Shown here in pieces: positions 23,682-31,909 of a stretch of 64,000 nt of DNA. The notes beneath the pieces were generated by a model. It saw only the letters and a program-made list of their open reading frames with translations, was not told where the DNA came from and searched no databases. Origin of the DNA: an uncultured Desulfuromonas sp. (GTDB lineage Bacteria; Desulfobacterota; Desulfuromonadia; Desulfuromonadales; Desulfuromonadaceae); assembly GCF_963678835.1 (NCBI RefSeq), contig NZ_OY787469.1, positions 1,116,001-1,180,000 of the forward strand, in the 5' to 3' direction. The translations under genes were made by a program, and so were the position numbers. Each line of letters begins with the position of its first letter. The stretch's first letter is position 1.

Positions 23682-25865
23682 TTAGATCAGAGAAAGACGC
23701 AGACCTATCTGATAAACCAGAGTGGCTAGACCAAAGGCGATGGAGGTATTGAAAAACAGAGCAAAACAAGCCCAGCGCCATGTGGTCTCACGCGCCATGA
23801 CAACAATCGTGACAAAACAGGGGGCGTAAAGTAGAACAAACAGAATGGCACTGATGGCGCTGATGCGGTTCCAATCGTCGTCCTTGGCAATGCGCTCAAT
23901 CAGGCTGGCGGGCTCATCGGTGTTGACGTCACCAAGAGAGTAGGCTGTTCCCAACGTTGAAACGATTACTTCTTTTGCGGCGACACCACCGATCAGGGCG
24001 ATGTTGGTTCGCCAGTTGAATCCGGCCCATGAGCTGACCGGCTCAAGCATTTTTCCCAATTGGCCGGCGGCAGAGGATTTGAGGGCTTCAAGACTCTGCC
24101 GGTGTGAAGTCTCTGTGAGTTGCTTTTTGATGTCGGCAATCTTCTCTGGTGAGGACGCTGTGGCCAGTTGCTGTTGCAGTTGGCTTCTCTGAAGGTTGAA
24201 GGCTTCCGTTTGGCTGTGGTCAGGACGAGGAAAGGTCATCGCCAGCCAAAGCAAGATGGAGATGGCCAGAATGACGGTGCCAGCTTTTTTTATGTATTCC
24301 CAAGTGCGTTCCCACGTATGGATAAAGATGCCCTGCACTGTCGGCCAACGGTAAGGGGGCAGTTCCATGACAAACGGCGTTGACTCGCCGCGGATTAGGG
24401 TGGAACGCAGCAGACGCGCCACCAGCAATGCCATGATCCAAGCCGTCAGCGTGATTCCGAACATAATCAGAGGTCGGTATTCGGAAAAGAATGCGCCGAT
24501 CAACAATAGAAAAACCGGAATTTTGGCACCGCAGGGCATAAATGGAGCGGTGAGGATGGTCGCAAGTTTCTCCCGGGGACTGCGCAGGGTGCGTGCCGCC
24601 ATAACACCTGGAACCGCACAGCCGCCGGCAATGCCGCCGGAGATGATAAACGGCATGACTGAACTGCCATGCAGGCCGAAGGTGCGGAAAACCTTATCCA
24701 TCATGTAGGCCACCCGGGCCATGTAGCCACAATCCTCTAAAAACGCGATCATGATGAACATGATGACAATGAGCGGCACAAAGCTCAGCACGCCGCCGAC
24801 ACCGTCGATAATCCCGGAGACGACAAGCGACTGCAGATAGCCACCGTCCGGCAACCACCCGCCAACAGTTCTGCCCAGCCACGAAAAGAGAAATTCGAGG
24901 GCTTGAAGAGGGTAATCCCCCAAGGTAAATGTGATTTGAAACATCAGGTAGAGCAGAGACATCATCAGGGTGGGGCCGAAAATTTTGTGGGTCAGAACCT
25001 TGTCCAGGTTGTCGGTCAGGTCCATTCGTTGGACCTCTTCAGGGTAGGTGACAATGCCCCGTTTGAGTAAGGAGTGGATAAAGCCGTAACGGTAGTCGGC
25101 AATGATTGCTTCAGGAAACGAGTTGAGCGTTTTTGCACAGTGATCACGTAAATTGTCGACGATGTTGCTCAGTTCGTCGGCAATGGCTACGTTTTCTTTA
25201 CGCCCCTGTTCAATAATCTGCTCATCATCTTCGAGGTATTTGATGGCCAGCCATCGCGAGGGGTAGCGCTGGGTCAGAAACTGGTGCTGCTCGATTTTCG
25301 CGATGAGTGTTTCCAGTACTGGATCAATGTCCGGGCCGTAGGAGATCTGCAGTGGCTGCCAGGTGGTCGTGTCTTCCGCCGCTTCTGTAATGCGATCCAG
25401 CAGTTCCGGTTTGCCCTCACCGCTGCGTGCCACGGTACCCACCACCGGACAGCCTAAGCCTTTGGCCAGCTTTTTCAGGTCAATGGACATCCCCTTGTTG
25501 CGGACATCGTCCATCATGTTCAAAGCCAGGAGAATTGGGACTCCAAGTTCCATAAACTGGATAGTCAGGTAAAGGTGCCGTTCAAGTTTGGTGGCATCAA
25601 CAACGTTGACCACCAGCTCCGGGCGCTCCTCTACCAGGACTTGCCGAGCAACCAGTTCCTCCTGGGTATAGGCTGTTAATGAGTAGCATCCGGGCAGATC
25701 GACGATATTTAGCTCGGTTTGCTGATGAATCAGGCGCCCTTCTTTGCGTTCGACGGTGATGCCGGGGTAGTTGCCGACATGTTGTCGGGAGCCGGTGACA
25801 TTATTAAATAAGGTCGTTTTGCCGGCATTTGGATTGCCGGCAAATGCGACGTGGCAGGATTGCAT
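23682..25865 (-). CDS. feoB: Ferrous iron transporter FeoB
   Basis: The 727-residue inner-membrane protein imports Fe(II). Its N-terminal G domain has G1 GNPNAGKTTLFN, switch I VGNYPGITVERKEG, G3 DLPGCYSL and G4 NMMD. A helical insert follows, then two Gate membrane repeats (VPLIVIMFIMIAFLEDCGYM and the C-terminal SAILFVLLYAPCFVTIV). A charged loop of about 60 residues (QTEAFNLQRSQLQQQL onward) lies between the membrane halves. The ATG overlaps the feoA stop as TGATG, so the two are translationally coupled. Confidence 0.96.
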   Translation of the reverse strand: MQSCHVAFAGNPNAGKTTLFNNVTGSRQHVGNYPGITVERKEGRLIHQQTELNIVDLPGCYSLTAYTQEELVARQVLVEERPELVVNVVDATKLERHLYLTIQFMELGVPILLALNMMDDVRNKGMSIDLKKLAKGLGCPVVGTVARSGEGKPELLDRITEAAEDTTTWQPLQISYGPDIDPVLETLIAKIEQHQFLTQRYPSRWLAIKYLEDDEQIIEQGRKENVAIADELSNIVDNLRDHCAKTLNSFPEAIIADYRYGFIHSLLKRGIVTYPEEVQRMDLTDNLDKVLTHKIFGPTLMMSLLYLMFQITFTLGDYPLQALEFLFSWLGRTVGGWLPDGGYLQSLVVSGIIDGVGGVLSFVPLIVIMFIMIAFLEDCGYMARVAYMMDKVFRTFGLHGSSVMPFIISGGIAGGCAVPGVMAARTLRSPREKLATILTAPFMPCGAKIPVFLLLIGAFFSEYRPLIMFGITLTAWIMALLVARLLRSTLIRGESTPFVMELPPYRWPTVQGIFIHTWERTWEYIKKAGTVILAISILLWLAMTFPRPDHSQTEAFNLQRSQLQQQLATASSPEKIADIKKQLTETSHRQSLEALKSSAAGQLGKMLEPVSSWAGFNWRTNIALIGGVAAKEVIVSTLGTAYSLGDVNTDEPASLIERIAKDDDWNRISAISAILFVLLYAPCFVTIVVMARETTWRWACFALFFNTSIAFGLATLVYQIGLRLSLI

Positions 25866-26104
25866 CAGTTGGAATCTTTCTTGGTGACATGGATAAAGTC
25901 GGCCTCGTTGTTACGTAGTGTCAGAGTGAAGCCGCGTAAGCGTAAGGCGACAGGGTCCTTCAGCGGTGCGCGTCCGATAATTTCAATTTCAGTACCGGGC
26001 ACCAATCCCATATCGCGCAGACGACGACCCATCTCTCCCGGGGCGGTTACTGCGGTGATGGTTGCTTTATCGTGAACATTTAACAGGCGGATAGATGAAC
26101 TCAT
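25865..26104 (-). CDS. feoA: Ferrous iron transport accessory protein FeoA
   Basis: The 79-residue SH3-like protein works with FeoB. The typical region is GRRLRDMGLVPGTEIEIIGRAPLKDPVALRLRG in two halves. No good Shine-Dalgarno site is visible before ATG 26104. It is the first gene of the feoAB unit and a Fur-box-like palindrome lies about 40 bases upstream. Confidence 0.93.
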   Translation of the reverse strand: MSSSIRLLNVHDKATITAVTAPGEMGRRLRDMGLVPGTEIEIIGRAPLKDPVALRLRGFTLTLRNNEADFIHVTKKDSN

Positions 26105-26143
26105 AAGGGTACCGTGCCGAATAAAATGGATATTCTTTGATTT

Positions 26144-26158
26144 TGAAAGTGTATTTCA
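26144..26158. promoter_or_regulatory. Fur-box-like palindrome upstream of feoA
   Basis: TGAAAGTGTATTTCA is an inverted repeat (TGAAA-N5-TTTCA) in the A+T-rich feoA upstream region, resembling the 7-1-7 Fur consensus. Fur control of feoAB is widely known; its operation here is inference. Confidence 0.4.
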
Positions 26159-26319
26159 TTATAGGTTCACCGGAGTTTGAGTCAAGGACAAACGCATGTT
26201 GCGCTGTTAATGTTATACCGTGTCTGCCGAGTGGTGGTGTTGTTGCACTCCCGTGGTACGATTCAATGTATGGCTGCATTGGGTGACTTTAAATATTCAA
26301 CCTTTTCAGGAGAAAAAAC

Positions 26320-26988
26320 ATGGGCGGACGCCTTATTTTATTTCCCGGTCTGGCAGCGGATGAACGGATGTATGCAGGGATCACTTGCTCGTGTTGCGAG
26401 CTTGTGACTCCGCGCCTTCTAATTCCTCAACAGAGTGAACCCATGGCCAATTATGCCCGTCGCCATATTGACGCATTGGCCCTTGATGTGGATGACCTGA
26501 TCGGGGGGTGTTCCTTTGGTAGCCTCGTGGCCAGCGAGATTGTTCGCCAGCAGCCGTGTCGAGGGCTTGTGCTGCTCAGCGGTGCAGTGTCTTCTCGGGC
26601 GATGGTGCATCAGGCTCAACTGTTAAGCCGGTGGTCAAAGGGGATTCCTTATGCTGTGATTCGCTGGGGGTTAACTCGTCGTTGGTTTCTGCAGCGTGTG
26701 TTCGGTGGTGGCACTGAAGCGCAGTTGGCACTGGGAAAGGTTATGATTGAAGAGGCGCCTGCGCCATTGGTTCGAGAAGGGGGGCGGCTGGCTGTCAGTT
26801 ACTTTCCAGAGGAGGATATTGTGATTCCGGTGTTCGCTCTGCATGGCACACAGGACCGGGTGATTCGGCCACCACAGGTGCCTGGGGTGGAACTTCTTGA
26901 CGATGCTGGCCATGGGATGGTGGTGAGTCATGCGGGTAGAGTGTCGCAATTTCTTGAAAATGTTACAGGTAATTGTTTTAACGGGTGA
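26320..26988 (+). CDS. Alpha/beta hydrolase
   Basis: This 222-residue protein begins LILFPGLAADERMY with an oxyanion-loop-like segment. The nucleophile elbow is GGCSFGSLVA (Ser at about residue 67), the acid is in HGTQDRVI and the His is in DAGHGMVV, so the triad looks complete. The cap is small. The substrate is unknown; it could be an esterase or thioesterase-like enzyme. AGGAG lies before the ATG. It is a single gene convergent with the barrel-cytochrome unit. Confidence 0.8.
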   Translation: MGGRLILFPGLAADERMYAGITCSCCELVTPRLLIPQQSEPMANYARRHIDALALDVDDLIGGCSFGSLVASEIVRQQPCRGLVLLSGAVSSRAMVHQAQLLSRWSKGIPYAVIRWGLTRRWFLQRVFGGGTEAQLALGKVMIEEAPAPLVREGGRLAVSYFPEEDIVIPVFALHGTQDRVIRPPQVPGVELLDDAGHGMVVSHAGRVSQFLENVTGNCFNG

Positions 26989-27105
26989 GAGCCGTTGTTG
27001 CTCCAGTTTGTTCAAGTTGTCTTTTTCCTCTTCGGCACGGTTCTTTTTTGTTGTTTTTCCATTGTTTATTCCGGTTGATTTCAAATTCAAAAAGTGGTGT
27101 AGCCA

Positions 27106-27138
27106 TAAAAAAGCCCGGCTGCTATTGCAGCCGGGCTG
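27106..27138 (-). terminator. Terminator of the cytochrome-barrel operon
   Basis: AGCCCGGCTGC and GCAGCCGGGCT form a perfect 11-bp stem around four bases, followed on the minus strand by TTTTTTAT. It lies about 30 bases after the TAA at 27166, which supports 27166 as the original end of the barrel gene. Confidence 0.92.
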
Positions 27139-27165
27139 AAGTACGTCAATGCATTTATTTGTATC

Positions 27166-29559
27166 TTAGAATTTGTATCCAAAGGCAACGTAGCCGCTAA
27201 TGGCGTCACCATCTTCGTCGCCGTAGACATATTCCTCATCTGATTCAAAGATGTCGTAGGTTGCAGAAGCTGTTGTGTAGAATGCCTCGCTGAAGCTGTA
27301 AGTACCACCTAAGGTGAATTGGAATTGCTCGTAAGAGAGGTCAGAGTATTCATCCAGAAGGTTGTTTTGCTCCCACGTGGTGTACAAACCGTTGCCAGCG
27401 CCAATGTTGTAGGCACTGCGATCAGCGAAATCCATGTCCCACTCGCTCTCAGCAAGGTTGTAGGTGAAGCTGGCATCCAATGCCAATTTTTTAGTAGCTT
27501 GATAGTTTGCACTCAGAGACAGGGTGTGAACAGTTGATTCGTACTCAGCGATATCACAGACCGACCCAAACTGGGCCGAAGAAACTGAGTTCGCTCAGCC
27601 ATGGTACCAACCGACGCACATTTTGTTCTCTGTTTCCTGCAGGTTAAAGTTGTACGCCATTGTGAGGTTCAGGTTGTTCGTCGGTGCAAACCAGAACGTG
27701 ACGCCGGGAACGTAAGTGTTTTGCTCGTAATCCACTTCGTCGTTTTCTTCAAAGCGTGCACGGATATAAGCCGTCAGAGACATGTTGGTAGCAACGTTCC
27801 ATGTCGTGCTTAGCTTGGTTTCGTAAACCTCATCCGGCTGGTTGGTTGATTCCAGACTACGGCTCGGGTAAACAGCGGACCAGTAGTATGCATTATCATT
27901 GGTTGGATCGCTGTCAGTTCTGTCGTAATAGTCGCTGGTGTTAACAACCGCAATCGGCTGCCAGTTGTCAGCATCTTGTCCGATACCAATGTGAGCACCT
28001 TTGAAAGGCTCGTCAATGTCCTGATACTCAAAGCTGCCGCGAACTTTCAGGCTGTCTCCAACACGGGTGTTGGCAGAGAGTTTGTAACTTTGGGTTTCGG
28101 TAGAGCCCAGCTCTTCTTCTTCATCACGCTCGATGTCTTCATACTCATAACCGAAACGCACAGTGGTGTAACGTGCCAGACGGTATACAGCGTCGAAACC
28201 GAATTCCTGAACTTCACGGCTTTCCGCCGTGGCGTCATGAACTTGATATGCTGAGAGATTGTGGTTCTGGCCATTGTACGTGTCGTAAAGATAGCTTCCC
28301 GCACCGATATCTGCGGTGTCTTTAACCAAAACATTGTCATTTTCAAGTTCGGGGAAGTACGTAGTGTATGTATCTGTGTCGATTTCGTACTGACTTCCAC
28401 GTACAGACAGGCGCAGATCGCCAAGACGGGTTGCGCCTTTGATGGCAAACGACTCAAACTCGCTGACCAACTCATCCGTATCCGTCAAGGTGTAGCTATG
28501 AGTTTCTACGGACGCATCCTTGTCAGCCTCGATTTCGGCTTTAACATAGGTGGCAGTAATTGAGGAGTTTTTGGGTAAATCAAGACGAGCCTTGATCAGG
28601 TGGCTGTCCTTGTCGGAGTCCGGAGTGCTGCAGTATTCGAGATCTTCAGCGCCGGCTCCGTAGAGCAGCTGATCGTCATCGACAACGTTACCGTGGACAG
28701 TATTGCTGCCGGTGTAATCTTCGTAGGGATTCGCGCCATTTTCCTCAAAACTGCGATTGAGGTATTCGTACTCAATCGTCAAGAGACCGAATTTACCAAC
28801 AGCACCTAAGGTAAATTCTTCAGTGCGCTCATCGATTTCCTTGGCGTCTGCGGAAACGTGGCAGTTGTTACACTTGCTGGTTGTGATGGCTTGTTTCAGG
28901 CCTTCACGCTCTTCAATGCGCATGCCGGCATGAAAAGTCACGTTTGGCAGCATGGGAAGAGTGAGTTCCGCTTCGTTTTTCCACTCACGACGCGTGATAA
29001 TGTAGTCGTTGTCCAGCTCTTGTTGATACTGCTCATGAGCGGCATCAATCGCATCAGTGACCGGTTGGTTAACCCCGTATTCTACGGTTGGGCCGTAGAT
29101 TTTTGAGTTCTCAGGGTTGCCGATGGTTGCCGGGGTGGTTACACGCGGCTGGTTGCCAAAAATGTCACCAAACGCGGTGGCACCGAGGTGGCTCAAAGTG
29201 TCATGGTCGTAATGATGCTCCATGACGCTTAATTCAGACCCCAGTTTAAAGACGCGTCCAGCGTCTAATTCCAGAGCATGTTCCTGGTCGCGTGGACCCA
29301 TGGTTTCGCTCTCAACTTCCAGCATGAAACTGCCGGCTTCTAACTCAAGATCAAGTTTAGGGGCCAAAGATACGCCATCTTCGGCACGGATTGAACCGTA
29401 TTCATTTACACGTGCTGCATTGTCTTTTGTATTGATGCCACTCATTCCCAGTTCCCAAGAACCGCTCAAGTGGGCACCGCCTTCATTTGCTGTGGCCGTC
29501 GTGACCGTCAGCAACAAGACGGAGAGCAATGCAAGCAGCCATAATTGGCTTTGCTTCAT
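27166..29559 (-). CDS. MtrB/PioB-family outer-membrane beta-barrel with an in-frame TGA
   Basis: A signal peptide (about residues 1-24) precedes a long series of amphipathic strands typical of MtrB/PioB, which sheathe a decaheme cytochrome in the outer membrane. The frame reads 654 codons to a TGA at 27597-27595, then stays open and in the same frame to a TAA at 27166, ending GYVAFGYKF with the terminal Phe needed for barrel assembly. The whole would be 797 residues. The TGA is either a nonsense mutation, a sequence error or a recoded codon. Residues 230-234 read CNNCH, a possible haem motif. The decaheme gene lies 21 bases upstream. Confidence 0.75.
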
Positions 29560-29580
29560 AGTATGTGCCTCCTCTACTGA

Positions 29581-30729
29581 TTAACGAGTCAACCCGCCAC
29601 CGCTAAGTGGCTGAGACGGAAAATCACTGCCGTGTACAACTTGGTGACAGGTTGTACACTTGGTGCCGAATGACATTTGGAAACCTTCATGACCGTTGGG
29701 GTTAGCCATGTCCGTAATGATTGCGCCGTTGGCAACAACGGGCTTTTTCGTCAGGGTTGTTCCGCTGCCGTCCGGGTTTGGAGCATCTTTGCTTACTCCG
29801 GTGTTTACACCGTCAGTTGTTGTCAGGTAGCGACCACCGTTAGCATTGTCGGCACTCAATGTGTCGGTTTCGGCGTCAAAACCACGACGTAAGATATGGA
29901 AGTGACCTTCATGGCATTGCAGGCACAGGAATGGCTCGTTTTGCGCCAGGAGGTTGTTGGCAACACTGCCGTGGGGGTCATGGCAGATAGTGCAGTCATC
30001 TTCAACCGGGGCATGGCCGAAAACAAACGGACCCTGGTAGCGGGTGTGGCAGTTCAGGCACAGGTCGTTCAAACGCTCATCCGTGTTCAAAGCTTCGCCG
30101 ATTGCACCGTGGACATTGTGGCAGCTGGAGCAATTCATTTTACCGGCTTCGATTGGATGGCTTGACGGGAAGTGGGTTTTGGCCTGTTCTTCCTGGTGAC
30201 AGCTGTAGCACAGCTCAGGATCTTCCATTTTCAGGCTGAACTTACCTTCACCGTCATGGATGCTGTGACAATCCGCACAGCCGACATCGCTCAGAGCGTG
30301 AGCACTGTGGGTATAGTCCATCAGGTGGCCATCGGTGTGACATTTGACACAGATGGCAGACGCCTGGTCAGAAACAAGTTCCGTCGGGCGCAGAATGTAT
30401 TCCGTGTCACCGTCATTGTCCACGTGCTGGCTGCCCGGTCCGTGGCAGGATTCGCAGCCTTTTTCCGCACCCATCAGCTCCCAGGTGGCCAAACGACCGT
30501 GAATGGTCTTGGCGAAGCCTTCAGCTGATGTAGAGGTGGCGAACATGTCGCCGGCCATGTCGTCGTGGCAGTCTGCGCAAGTCTCTTGACCGACGTAGCA
30601 TGCACCTTCGATCACAGGCAGGGTCAGTACTTTTTCCCGGATACTTCCCGTGGCGCAAGCGCCCAGGATGAGTAGCAGGGGAAGAGCCTTCACCAGCCAT
30701 GAGGCCTTGGTGTTGAACTTCCTTCGCAT
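29581..30729 (-). CDS. Decaheme c-type cytochrome lipoprotein, MtrA/DmsE-like
   Basis: The 382-residue product has ten CxxCH motifs (CADCH, CESCH, CVKCH, CADCH, CYSCH, CSSCH, CLNCH, CTICH, CLQCH, CTTCH). It starts with a lipoprotein signal, LLLILGAC with Cys at about residue 25, so it should be anchored in a membrane. MtrA-type decaheme proteins sit inside an MtrB-type barrel and move electrons across the outer membrane. The barrel gene follows directly. The region after haem 9 (about residues 285-345) is a Gly/Asn/Thr-rich insert not typical of MtrA. Its promoter region is shared with a divergent LysR gene. Confidence 0.9.
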   Translation of the reverse strand: MRRKFNTKASWLVKALPLLLILGACATGSIREKVLTLPVIEGACYVGQETCADCHDDMAGDMFATSTSAEGFAKTIHGRLATWELMGAEKGCESCHGPGSQHVDNDGDTEYILRPTELVSDQASAICVKCHTDGHLMDYTHSAHALSDVGCADCHSIHDGEGKFSLKMEDPELCYSCHQEEQAKTHFPSSHPIEAGKMNCSSCHNVHGAIGEALNTDERLNDLCLNCHTRYQGPFVFGHAPVEDDCTICHDPHGSVANNLLAQNEPFLCLQCHEGHFHILRRGFDAETDTLSADNANGGRYLTTTDGVNTGVSKDAPNPDGSGTTLTKKPVVANGAIITDMANPNGHEGFQMSFGTKCTTCHQVVHGSDFPSQPLSGGGLTR

Positions 30730-30852
30730 GTTTTCTCCTTTCGTTCTTCCTCCAATGATGTGCCCTGACCTTGGTTCCGTCCCGTGTTTCCATTAACGCT
30801 GTGTTGTTGGCGGGACGATAAAGGCCAAGAAAAAACAGAGAGTTATGAATCC

Positions 30853-30870
30853 TATGATTGTTCGATCATA
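30853..30870. promoter_or_regulatory. Palindrome in the cytochrome/LysR divergent promoter region (1)
   Basis: TATGAT-N6-ATCATA is a perfect inverted repeat about 125 bases upstream of the cytochrome start. It may be an operator for the adjacent LysR regulator or another factor. Only the symmetry is observed. Confidence 0.35.
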
Positions 30871-30954
30871 TTTATACATAACACCCACGTTTGATATCAC
30901 TGTGTACAATACTTTTACGAGCTGGTAGTGTAAAACGAATCATTTTAATGGCTG

Positions 30955-30971
30955 TATAAGTTTGACTTATA
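30955..30971. promoter_or_regulatory. Palindrome in the cytochrome/LysR divergent promoter region (2)
   Basis: TATAAG-TTTGA-CTTATA is a 17-bp inverted repeat ending 29 bases before the likely LysR start. LysR proteins usually bind T-N11-A type dyads near their own promoter, so this is a candidate autoregulatory site. Confidence 0.4.
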
Positions 30972-31000
30972 GAATCCTTTTTTTATATTTGGAATTTCCT

Positions 31001-31909
31001 ATGGAAACACAATATCTAAAGACATTGCTTATCGCTGCAGAGGAGGGAAGTTTCTCTCGGGCGGCTGCCAAGCTGCATTTAACCCAATCCGCTGTTTCAC
31101 AGCGGACCAAGAGCCTTGAGGCGTGCTGCGGCATGCAGCTTCTTGATCGTTCCGGTGCTGTGCTGGAGCCGACGGCTGCCGGTCGCATTGTTCTCGAAGG
31201 GGCGCGGCGTATTCTTGATATGGAAGAGCAGATGATGCAGGATCTGCGCTCACTGACGGATCGACAGCACCTTTATATCTGTTGTACACCGGCGTTCGGC
31301 ATGGCGCATCTGCCGCAAATTCTTAAACGCTTTATGCAAGAATACGGTGAAGTGGAAGACCTTAAGTTTCTGTTTGGTGCTCCGTTGCAAGCTCTGGACG
31401 GCGTGAAGAACGGTGAATTTGATGTGGCGGTGATAGAGCATCTTGCCGATATGGATTTCGGCACCATGCGTCATATGGACCTGCCTCAGGATGAGATGAT
31501 CTTTGTCAGCTCTCCGACCTATGGTCCGACAGCTCACGATATCACCCTTGCAGATATTCAGGAGTGCAACTTTATTACCCGGCGTGATGGCTGCAGTTGT
31601 CGCGACTTGCTGAGTTTTAATTTAAAGGGTACCGGGGGGAATATGGCGGACTTCCGTCGCGTCATGGTGCTGGATGATTTCAGCCTGATTATCAAAGAAG
31701 TTCTCGCCGGCCAAGGGGTGACGTTTATTTCCCGTTCTGCGGTGCAGGAATATCTTGATGAAGGGCGCCTGCTTGAGCATCATGTCCCTGGGTTTCACTG
31801 CTATCGGCATCGCAGTATTGTTGCCAGAGAGTGTGAGACGTCGGCGTCGTTAAAGCAGGTGTTCATGCGGTGTGTCTGTCATTATTTTGATCTTGAACCC
31901 GGCGAATAA
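31001..31909 (+). CDS. LysR-family transcriptional regulator
   Basis: The 302-residue protein has an N-terminal winged helix-turn-helix (LLIAAEEGSFSRAAAKLHLTQ continuing into SAVSQRTKSLE) and a periplasmic-binding-protein-like effector domain (about residues 90-290). ATG 31001 gives the usual LysR start; a TTG at 30962 would add 13 residues and lacks support. It is divergent from the decaheme/barrel operon, so that operon is the natural candidate target, but the effector is unknown. The gene ends TAATG, overlapping the next start. Confidence 0.9.
   Translation: METQYLKTLLIAAEEGSFSRAAAKLHLTQSAVSQRTKSLEACCGMQLLDRSGAVLEPTAAGRIVLEGARRILDMEEQMMQDLRSLTDRQHLYICCTPAFGMAHLPQILKRFMQEYGEVEDLKFLFGAPLQALDGVKNGEFDVAVIEHLADMDFGTMRHMDLPQDEMIFVSSPTYGPTAHDITLADIQECNFITRRDGCSCRDLLSFNLKGTGGNMADFRRVMVLDDFSLIIKEVLAGQGVTFISRSAVQEYLDEGRLLEHHVPGFHCYRHRSIVARECETSASLKQVFMRCVCHYFDLEPGE

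What the first reader, a model, noticed from the sequence alone, without database searches (positions are those of the whole stretch)
27575..27620. In-frame TGA in the MtrB-like barrel, with a possible bacterial SECIS
The barrel gene has a single TGA (27597-27595, minus strand) after which the same frame stays open for 142 codons to a proper barrel C terminus ending in Phe, followed by the operon terminator. Reading continues without a shift. Starting 17 bases after the TGA, GGCCCA-GTT-TGGGTC can form a hairpin whose loop begins with G about 23 bases from the TGA. That fits the loose bacterial SECIS rule (loop 16-37 bases downstream, G in the first two loop positions). Cys residues lie nearby on both sides (MCVGWYHG and GSVCD), so Sec for Cys is conceivable. 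A CTGAG-CGAA-CTCAG hairpin also overlaps the TGA. A plain nonsense mutation or a sequence error remains the simplest explanation.
Basis: partly seen in the sequence, partly recalled or inferred. Interest (0 to 1): 0.72.

Follow-up and report, generated by a model that had tools for sequence, protein, structure and literature searches.

The report
Selenocysteine in an electron-conduit barrel
The apparent stop codon inside this outer-membrane barrel gene is most likely read as the rare amino acid selenocysteine, a feature kept in relatives across the bacterial phylum and predicted to sit at the outer mouth of a protein wire that carries electrons out of the cell; the family is already catalogued as a selenoprotein, but no role for its selenium was found.

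Summary
The TGA is almost certainly a selenocysteine (Sec) codon, not a nonsense mutation or sequence error. In-frame TGA stands at this codon in 81 of 111 aligned rows of relatives; 8 rows have Cys (one clade nested in the Sec family), 17 are gapped or cut short, 5 distant rows have other residues. The genome has selA, selB, selD and tRNA-Sec. NCBIfam already has the family (NF041027) and a 2026 review lists it: a new member of a known kind. Added here: Sec looks ancestral and was replaced by Cys once; the nearby Cys are not generally conserved; the predicted fold is a 26-strand MtrB barrel with Sec in an extracellular loop; the partner MtrA-like decaheme carries an extra His after haem motif 9 in 82 of 82 systems of the Sec/Cys groups and 0 of 8 others. 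Best functional guess: a redox or metal-binding site at the conduit's outer exit (inferred).

The parts
27166..29559 (-). MtrB/PioB-type outer-membrane barrel, 797 aa with Sec655 (GSU2204 family selenoprotein)
   Evidence: NCBIfam NF041027 551.9 bits, cut-off 350; Pfam MtrB_PioB 59.5 bits, cut-off 23; AF2 model read as 26 strands; best PDB fold 6r2q_B
27595..27597 (-). TGA, codon 655, selenocysteine
   Evidence: TGA at this column in 81 of 111 aligned rows, Cys codon in 8
27561..27579 (-). bacterial SECIS apical hairpin (8 pairs, loop GTT)
   Evidence: Covariation 0.353 vs 0.115 +- 0.016 in shuffles, 0 of 500; synonymous resampling; fold z -3.64
28858..28872 (-). CXXCH motif, residues 230-234 (CNNCH), predicted extracellular turn between strands 7 and 8
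   Evidence: C230, C233, H234 invariant in 70 of 70 rows of A2; topology inferred
29215..29217 (-). His115, invariant, at the outer end of strand 5; candidate second ligand of a CXXCH haem (inferred)
   Evidence: 70 of 70 rows of A2
27616..27618 (-). Cys648, before the Sec loop
   Evidence: C in 69 of 81 Sec rows
27556..27558 (-). Cys668, after the Sec loop, cross-strand from Cys648 if the predicted hairpin is right (inferred)
   Evidence: C in 44 of 81 Sec rows; strand limits
29581..30729 (-). MtrA-like decaheme c-type cytochrome with lipoprotein-like start (by eye), first gene of the pair (GSU2203 family)
   Evidence: NCBIfam NF041028 460.5 bits, cut-off 325; 10 CXXCH; best PDB sequence hit 6r2q_A, E 4.5e-41
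29896..29898 (-). His278 of the decaheme, an extra His after the ninth haem motif (CLQCHEGHFH)
   Evidence: H in 74 of 74 partners in the Sec group and 8 of 8 in the Cys group, 0 of 8 of barrels without; the Sec site was seen in the same locus for 72 of the 74
27112..27137 (-). terminator-like hairpin after the barrel gene
   Evidence: 11-pair stem, 9 G-C, then T run (consensus match)

Best explanation
The TGA encodes selenocysteine, put in by the normal bacterial route (SelB with Sec-tRNA, guided by the SECIS hairpin at 27561-27579). The product is a full-length 26-strand MtrB-type barrel. It most likely sheathes the decaheme cytochrome encoded just upstream, as MtrB sheathes MtrA, and so carries electrons across the outer membrane (inferred from family and fold). 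Sec655 lies in a predicted extracellular loop at the barrel mouth. Inferred, not shown: the selenolate is a redox or metal-binding site at the outer exit of the haem wire, working with the extra His278 of the decaheme near its outer end and perhaps with a rim haem on the invariant CXXCH. It would pass electrons to an outside acceptor or partner. A Sec-Cys bridge with C648 or C668 may add to this in the Desulfuromonadales but cannot be the general mechanism. My confidence is 0.95 or more for Sec coding, about 0.85 for an outer-membrane electron conduit, and about 0.35 for the exit-site role; the figure below is for the first two steps.
For: All 12 family genomes with a match (of 14 searched) hold a match with an in-frame TGA, in most with the flank CVGWYHG-U-A. 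Across the sampled phylum the column is TGA in 81 of 111 aligned rows and Cys in 8. G654 and Sec/Cys655 are kept in 62 of 62 rows of A2 outside the eight rows of the groups without Sec. The Cys clade (7 rows in the tree) is nested inside the Sec family, SH-aLRT 99, 3 changes of state in all. SECIS covariation, synonymous-codon resampling, single-sequence fold. The hairpin is decayed in Cys members: all 5 inner pairs in 1 of 7, against 67 of 80 Sec sites. selB, tRNA-Sec, selA and a selD with a TGA inside. NF041027 and the review entry. Best PDB fold: MtrB of the Mtr complex, E 3.2e-24. A gene with 9 or more CXXCH ends within 150 nt upstream in 90 of 90 distinct barrels with at least 900 nt of upstream sequence. 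UGA is an ordinary stop elsewhere in the window: 3 of 10 genes checked end in TGA.
Against: No protein evidence for Sec was available. The Sec loop has pLDDT under 50 and no coordinates were returned, so no distance was measured. In strand order, Sec (between strands 21 and 22) and CXXCH (between 7 and 8) lie about half a barrel apart, which argues against Sec as ligand of a CXXCH haem. The decaheme has ten further invariant His beside the ten of CXXCH, so it does not need Sec as a ligand. The His278 link is a contrast between the family and 8 outgroup-like systems and may only be ancestry. 13 of 80 Sec sites lack at least one inner pair of the hairpin in both registers. The tRNA-Sec family also reaches its cut-off in 5 of 14 control genomes and at a second, weaker place in this genome (47.9 bits, cut-off 47), so that match alone is weak.
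Confidence: 0.9

Rival explanations
1. Nonsense mutation or sequencing error; the gene is a pseudogene or the protein ends at residue 654.
For: The window alone cannot exclude it. A hit in G086 has several TGA and TAA, so broken copies may exist.
Against: Same codon at the same place in 81 aligned rows; downstream protein conserved; RNA hairpin under selection; Cys in the paralogues.
Confidence: 0.02
2. Regulated stop or programmed read-through that makes a short and a long form, with an ordinary amino acid at the TGA.
For: SECIS decoding competes with termination (general knowledge), so some 654-residue product is expected.
Against: Within the family the only replacement seen is Cys, in one clade. 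The hairpin lies at the SECIS distance and the machinery is present. A barrel lacking its last five predicted strands should not insert (inference).
Confidence: 0.03
3. Sec acts mainly by a local Sec-S bridge with Cys648 or Cys668, a thiol switch that locks the outer loop.
For: Both Cys are present in the window and in the close relatives of A1 with Sec; 648 and 668 would be cross-strand neighbours in the predicted hairpin.
Against: C648 is missing in 12 of 81 and C668 in 37 of 81 Sec rows; L092, L093, L097, L104, L105, L110, L113 and L114 have neither at these columns; the Cys-type rows lack both.
Confidence: 0.15
4. Sec (or Cys) is a direct axial ligand of a c-type haem attached at CXXCH in the barrel.
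For: CXXCH is invariant in A2 and Sec/Cys is invariant in the family; six sister-group barrels without Sec have an invariant Lys and His in the matching region.
Against: The two sites are about 14 of 26 strands apart in order. His115, two strands from the CXXCH turn and invariant in 70 of 70, is a better candidate. CXXCH stays in the 8 A2 rows without Sec/Cys.
Confidence: 0.07

Closest known systems
NCBIfam NF041027, GSU2204 family CXXCH-containing (seleno)protein
   Same: Same family: 551.9 bits (cut-off 350), with the match to the model ending at residue 654, just before Sec. The AEM 2026 review PMC13188914 lists it as a selenoprotein with no motif given (passage).
   Different: Nothing essential.
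MtrAB of Shewanella (PDB 6R2Q) and PioAB
   Same: 26-strand barrel (as read from the model) next to an MtrA-like decaheme; 6r2q_B is the best fold hit and 6r2q_A the best sequence hit of the decaheme (where the deposited molecule name is another; that chain A is MtrA is recalled).
   Different: Sequence far apart (12% in the fold alignment). That MtrB of 6R2Q has no CXXCH and no Sec is recalled and was not checked here. By eye, the ORF list shows no third cytochrome gene next to the pair in the window; I made no search for one.
OmcK/OmcL conduit (GSU2203/GSU2204; HotSeep-1 partners of methane-oxidising archaea)
   Same: GSU2203 is named OmcK in PMC4070692, and GSU2203/GSU2204 rise with hematite and magnetite (table passage). 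PMC10553843 describes a porin and cytochrome homologous to OmcL and OmcK in HotSeep-1, expressed 4-fold above OetABI (passages).
   Different: The main text of PMC10553843 does not hold the words selenocysteine or selenoprotein. That its porin (OmcL) is this Sec family is inferred because it cites the hematite/magnetite result; it was not tested.
ExtKL, proposed selenocysteine cytochrome of Geobacter
   Same: Another predicted selenoprotein in a Geobacter gene cluster for outer electron transfer (passages of PMC5877670; review table).
   Different: Described there as a five-haem cytochrome, not a barrel. Homology was not tested here.

Membership tests
Bacterial selenoprotein | In-frame TGA conserved at the same column in homologues | tested here: met
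   81 of 111 aligned rows TGA; 8 Cys; 17 gap or truncated; 5 other residues in outgroup-like rows
Bacterial selenoprotein | Cys-containing homologues at the Sec position | tested here: met
   TGC or TGT in 8 rows, 7 of them in the tree as one clade
Bacterial selenoprotein | bSECIS: hairpin with its loop 16-37 nt downstream and G in the first two loop positions (rule as the finding states it) | tested here: met
   Window loop starts 24 nt after the TGA with G; all five inner pairs form in 67 of 80 Sec sites in one of two registers
Bacterial selenoprotein | selA, selB, selC, selD in the genome | tested here: met
   each has a match over the curated cut-off
Bacterial selenoprotein | Sec found in the protein | not testable with these tools
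   Needs mass spectrometry or 75Se labelling
NF041027 (GSU2204 family) | Score above the curated cut-off | tested here: met
   551.9 bits vs 350
MtrB/PioB barrel | Pfam PF11854 above gathering score and MtrB fold | tested here: met
   59.5 bits vs 23; 6r2q_B E 3.2e-24
MtrB/PioB barrel | Curated NCBIfam subfamily TIGR03509 above cut-off | tested here: not met
   37.4 bits vs 240.05: related to the MtrB/PioB subfamily but not a member of that model
c-type haem protein (barrel CXXCH) | Haem actually attached at CXXCH | not testable with these tools
   Motif invariant in 70 of 70 rows of A2; attachment unknown

The most novel reading that the evidence does not exclude
The conduit ends in a new kind of surface site: a selenolate on the barrel rim, an extra histidine of the inserted decaheme wire and a barrel-borne haem together form an outer electron-delivery or metal centre, so that selenium tunes the last step of electron transfer to minerals or partner cells, including the partners of methane-oxidising archaea.
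Probability: 0.15. Interest if true: 0.85.

Novelty: new member of a known kind. Interest (0 to 1): 0.5.

Why it matters
Sec is costly and rare, and usually sits in enzymes (general knowledge). Here it sits in a membrane barrel that probably sheathes an electron wire, and among the 88 sequences of the tree it was replaced by Cys only once. The family is catalogued, but the passages I saw give its selenium no role and no motif. If the Sec loop is the delivery site, electron transfer to minerals, electrodes or syntrophic partners would depend on selenium supply. Practical point: annotation that stops at the TGA loses the last 142 residues of this barrel and so misjudges conduit gene sets.

Tried and rejected
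Rfam: six weak matches (E 0.044 to 5.9, all under the gathering scores) in 25000-31000; five fall on the terminator region and one elsewhere. The CTGAG hairpin over the TGA: not conserved, 5 of 5 pairs in 1 of 80. Sec as ligand of the decaheme: disfavoured, since ten further His are invariant. Sec as ligand of the CXXCH haem: disfavoured by strand order. Local Sec-Cys bridge as the general mechanism: rejected by the lack of both Cys in a Sec clade. selA presence as a test: weak, because 114 of 136 genomes of the order have it over the cut-off; of 50 genomes that I counted by hand with a TGA-holding hit (the broken G086 hit left out; G038 also has a TAG), 48 have it, the exceptions G053 and G092 being 81% and 84% complete. 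The TGA position was checked only for fetched loci, not for all 50. Stop reassignment: rejected, ileS and lspA (named by eye) end in TGA.

Rows dropped: the tree used 88 of 111 rows, leaving out fragments and distant MtrB rows. The SECIS pair count used 62 of 80 sites: I left out eight of the clade whose hairpin is shifted by one base and ten others, some near-copies and some only for brevity; one search used all 80. In one search two of the five measures were reached by a few shuffles (1 and 2 of 500), the other three by none. In the decaheme count, two of the 74 in the Sec group (L018, L082) come from loci cut before the site, and two pairs of rows are near-copies. In one search one row (L133) was put in the Sec group by mistake; one search corrects it. 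An earlier count said 11 of 12 genomes; the right count is 12 of 12 with a match (of 14). The entry calls KTYH invariant in the sister group; only its Lys and His are. The Haft 2023 and 2025 papers are not in the library, so what they say of this family is unknown to me. PMC12013277 and PMC5029168 do not hold the terms I tried in their main text. Passages of PMC12133095, PMC13194489, PMC3495685 and PMC2725144 added nothing on this Sec. The second structure job was not used.

Full report
OBSERVATION. The minus-strand gene 29559-27166 encodes a barrel with one in-frame TGA at codon 655 (27597-27595), then 142 sense codons to a C-terminal Phe and TAA, and a terminator-like hairpin at 27137-27112. 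The 3' hairpin is real: 8 pairs, 27579-27572 with 27568-27561, loop GTT. The surrounding 61 nt fold at -25.3 kcal/mol, z -3.64 against 200 shuffles, none as good. The second hairpin proposed over the TGA pairs fully in 1 of 80 homologous sites, the window's own.

IDENTITY. NCBIfam NF041027, 'GSU2204 family CXXCH-containing (seleno)protein', matches at 551.9 bits (cut-off 350), and the match ends at residue 654 with the last model position. Pfam MtrB_PioB also matches above its gathering score; the narrower NCBIfam model TIGR03509 for MtrB/PioB is not met (37.4 bits vs 240.05). The upstream gene is a decaheme of NF041028 (GSU2203 family) with ten CXXCH. Among 90 distinct barrels with at least 900 nt of upstream sequence, 90 have a gene with nine or more CXXCH ending within 150 nt upstream, 89 of them with exactly ten.

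CONSERVATION OF THE TGA. Of 14 genomes in the family, 12 have a match and all 12 hold an in-frame TGA in it. In the order, 63 of 136 genomes match, 50 of them with a TGA-holding hit by my hand count. In a sample of 394 genomes of the phylum, 38 exceed the NF041027 cut-off. From the fetched loci I aligned 111 non-redundant rows (some genes give two pieces): TGA at the Sec column in 81, Cys codon in 8, gap or truncation in 17, other residues in 5 distant rows, two of them Arg. Gly654 and Sec/Cys655 are kept in 62 of 62 rows of A2 outside the eight rows of the groups without Sec. In the tree of 88 rows (73 Sec, 7 Cys, 8 neither) the Cys members form one clade (SH-aLRT 99) nested among Sec members; three state changes suffice. 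Sec is therefore most likely ancestral in the family, with one Sec-to-Cys replacement. The tree is a quick one without bootstrap and warns of long branches; two of the rows without Sec (L123, L126) fall near the Sec family on such branches.

SECIS. In 80 distinct Sec sites a hairpin stands at about the same place; all five inner pairs form in 67 of 80 in one of two registers one base apart. Mean pairing is 7.06 of 8, against 4.34 +- 0.11 (maximum 4.64 of 500) when codons are resampled synonymously, so the structure is selected beyond the protein. On 62 of the 80 sites, pair changes on both sides occur in 55 cells against 17.4 +- 3.1 in shuffles; the covariation score is 0.353 against 0.115 +- 0.016 (0 of 500 for both), and slid partners score 0.032-0.119. 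Related sequences can exceed shuffles for reasons of ancestry, so the slid control and the resampling carry the weight. In two members (L050, L053) the protein after Sec has diverged while the stem is kept by compensatory changes. In the Cys clade the hairpin has decayed: all five inner pairs in 1 of 7.

MACHINERY. The window's genome has selA and selB side by side, a selD next to them with a TGA inside, and a tRNA-Sec at 71 bits (gathering score 47), all over the curated cut-offs. The tRNA match alone is weak support: a second place reaches 47.9 bits and 5 of 14 control genomes pass the cut-off. UGA is an ordinary stop for other genes of the window, for example ileS and lspA (named by eye).

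STRUCTURE. AlphaFold2 on 70 aligned sequences gives mean pLDDT 79.2 and strands that I read as 26 alternating ones. The closest solved fold is 6r2q_B of the Mtr complex, E 3.2e-24, TM 0.77 by the target. With both ends periplasmic (established for outer-membrane barrels; applied here by inference), the Sec loop 652-664 and the CXXCH turn 229-232 are both extracellular and sit on the long hairpins s21/s22 and s7/s8. The Sec loop is poorly predicted (pLDDT under 50). By strand order the two sites face each other across the mouth. His115, invariant in 70 of 70, lies two strands from CXXCH and could be its second haem ligand. No coordinates were available, so no distance was measured.

WHAT THE SEC MIGHT DO. 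The nearby Cys are not general: C648 in 69 and C668 in 44 of 81 Sec rows, and one Sec clade has neither. The partner decaheme has ten proximal and ten further His invariant in all groups, so its haems can all be served. One extra His, H278, right after the ninth haem motif, is present in 74 of 74 partners in the Sec group and 8 of 8 in the Cys group, and in 0 of 8 partners of barrels without Sec/Cys; for 72 of the 74 the Sec site itself was seen in the same locus. Six of those eight barrels have an invariant Lys and His near the matching region instead. This suggests, without proving, that Sec/Cys and H278 work together near the outer end of the wire (that the ninth haem lies near the outer end is recalled from the Mtr structure); common ancestry could give the same pattern.

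LITERATURE. A full-text search for GSU2204 found 2 papers. PMC13188914 (AEM 2026, passages) lists the family in its selenoprotein table with no Sec motif. PMC4070692 (Table 2 passage) shows GSU2203 (OmcK) and GSU2204 up 1.5-2.7 fold with hematite or magnetite. PMC10553843 (passages) describes an OmcK/OmcL conduit in bacterial partners of methane-oxidising archaea and does not hold the words selenocysteine or selenoprotein in its main text. PMC5877670 (passages) proposes ExtKL as a Sec cytochrome. Searches for selenocysteine with extracellular electron transfer (24 papers, 15 listed) and for selenoprotein with Geobacter, outer membrane and cytochrome (6 papers) listed no title on the role of this Sec. 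I read only passages, and most subscription papers are not held.

VERDICT. The recoding is as good as certain by comparative evidence. The system is a new member of a catalogued selenoprotein family for whose selenium I found no assigned role; the exit-site mechanism is an inference that the listed experiments could settle.

Noticed in passing
G000:C1:2120469-2122883 (-), locus L024: The window's genome holds a second barrel of the family, 27% identical, with Cys instead of Sec and its own ten-CXXCH partner upstream. Sec and Cys versions of the conduit coexist in one genome.
   Followed up: partly
loci L128-L133 (about 610 aa): A sister group of shorter CXXCH barrels without Sec or Cys, with an invariant Lys and His (KTYH in 4 of 6) near the Sec region; 4 of the 5 listed have a further gene with three or more CXXCH upstream.
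   Followed up: partly
L050 and L053, sites after the TGA: The protein after Sec (QFGSIC in many others) has changed while the SECIS stem is kept by compensatory changes: a natural separation of RNA and protein constraint.
   Followed up: partly
G086:C110:73861-76215: A relative whose hits hold several TGA and TAA: probably a decayed copy.
   Followed up: no
L124 (G177:C87): A Cys-type member with a TGA at another place, where the Cys-type relatives in A1 have Arg; likely a nonsense change or assembly error.
   Followed up: no
L086 and L089: TGA members in records titled Deltaproteobacteria and Proteobacteria, possibly outside the window's phylum; the tree tool places L086 in Myxococcota by its title.
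   Followed up: no
window 30962-31909 (+): A divergent gene that looks like a LysR-type regulator, back to back with the decaheme-barrel pair; a possible regulator (name by eye).
   Followed up: no
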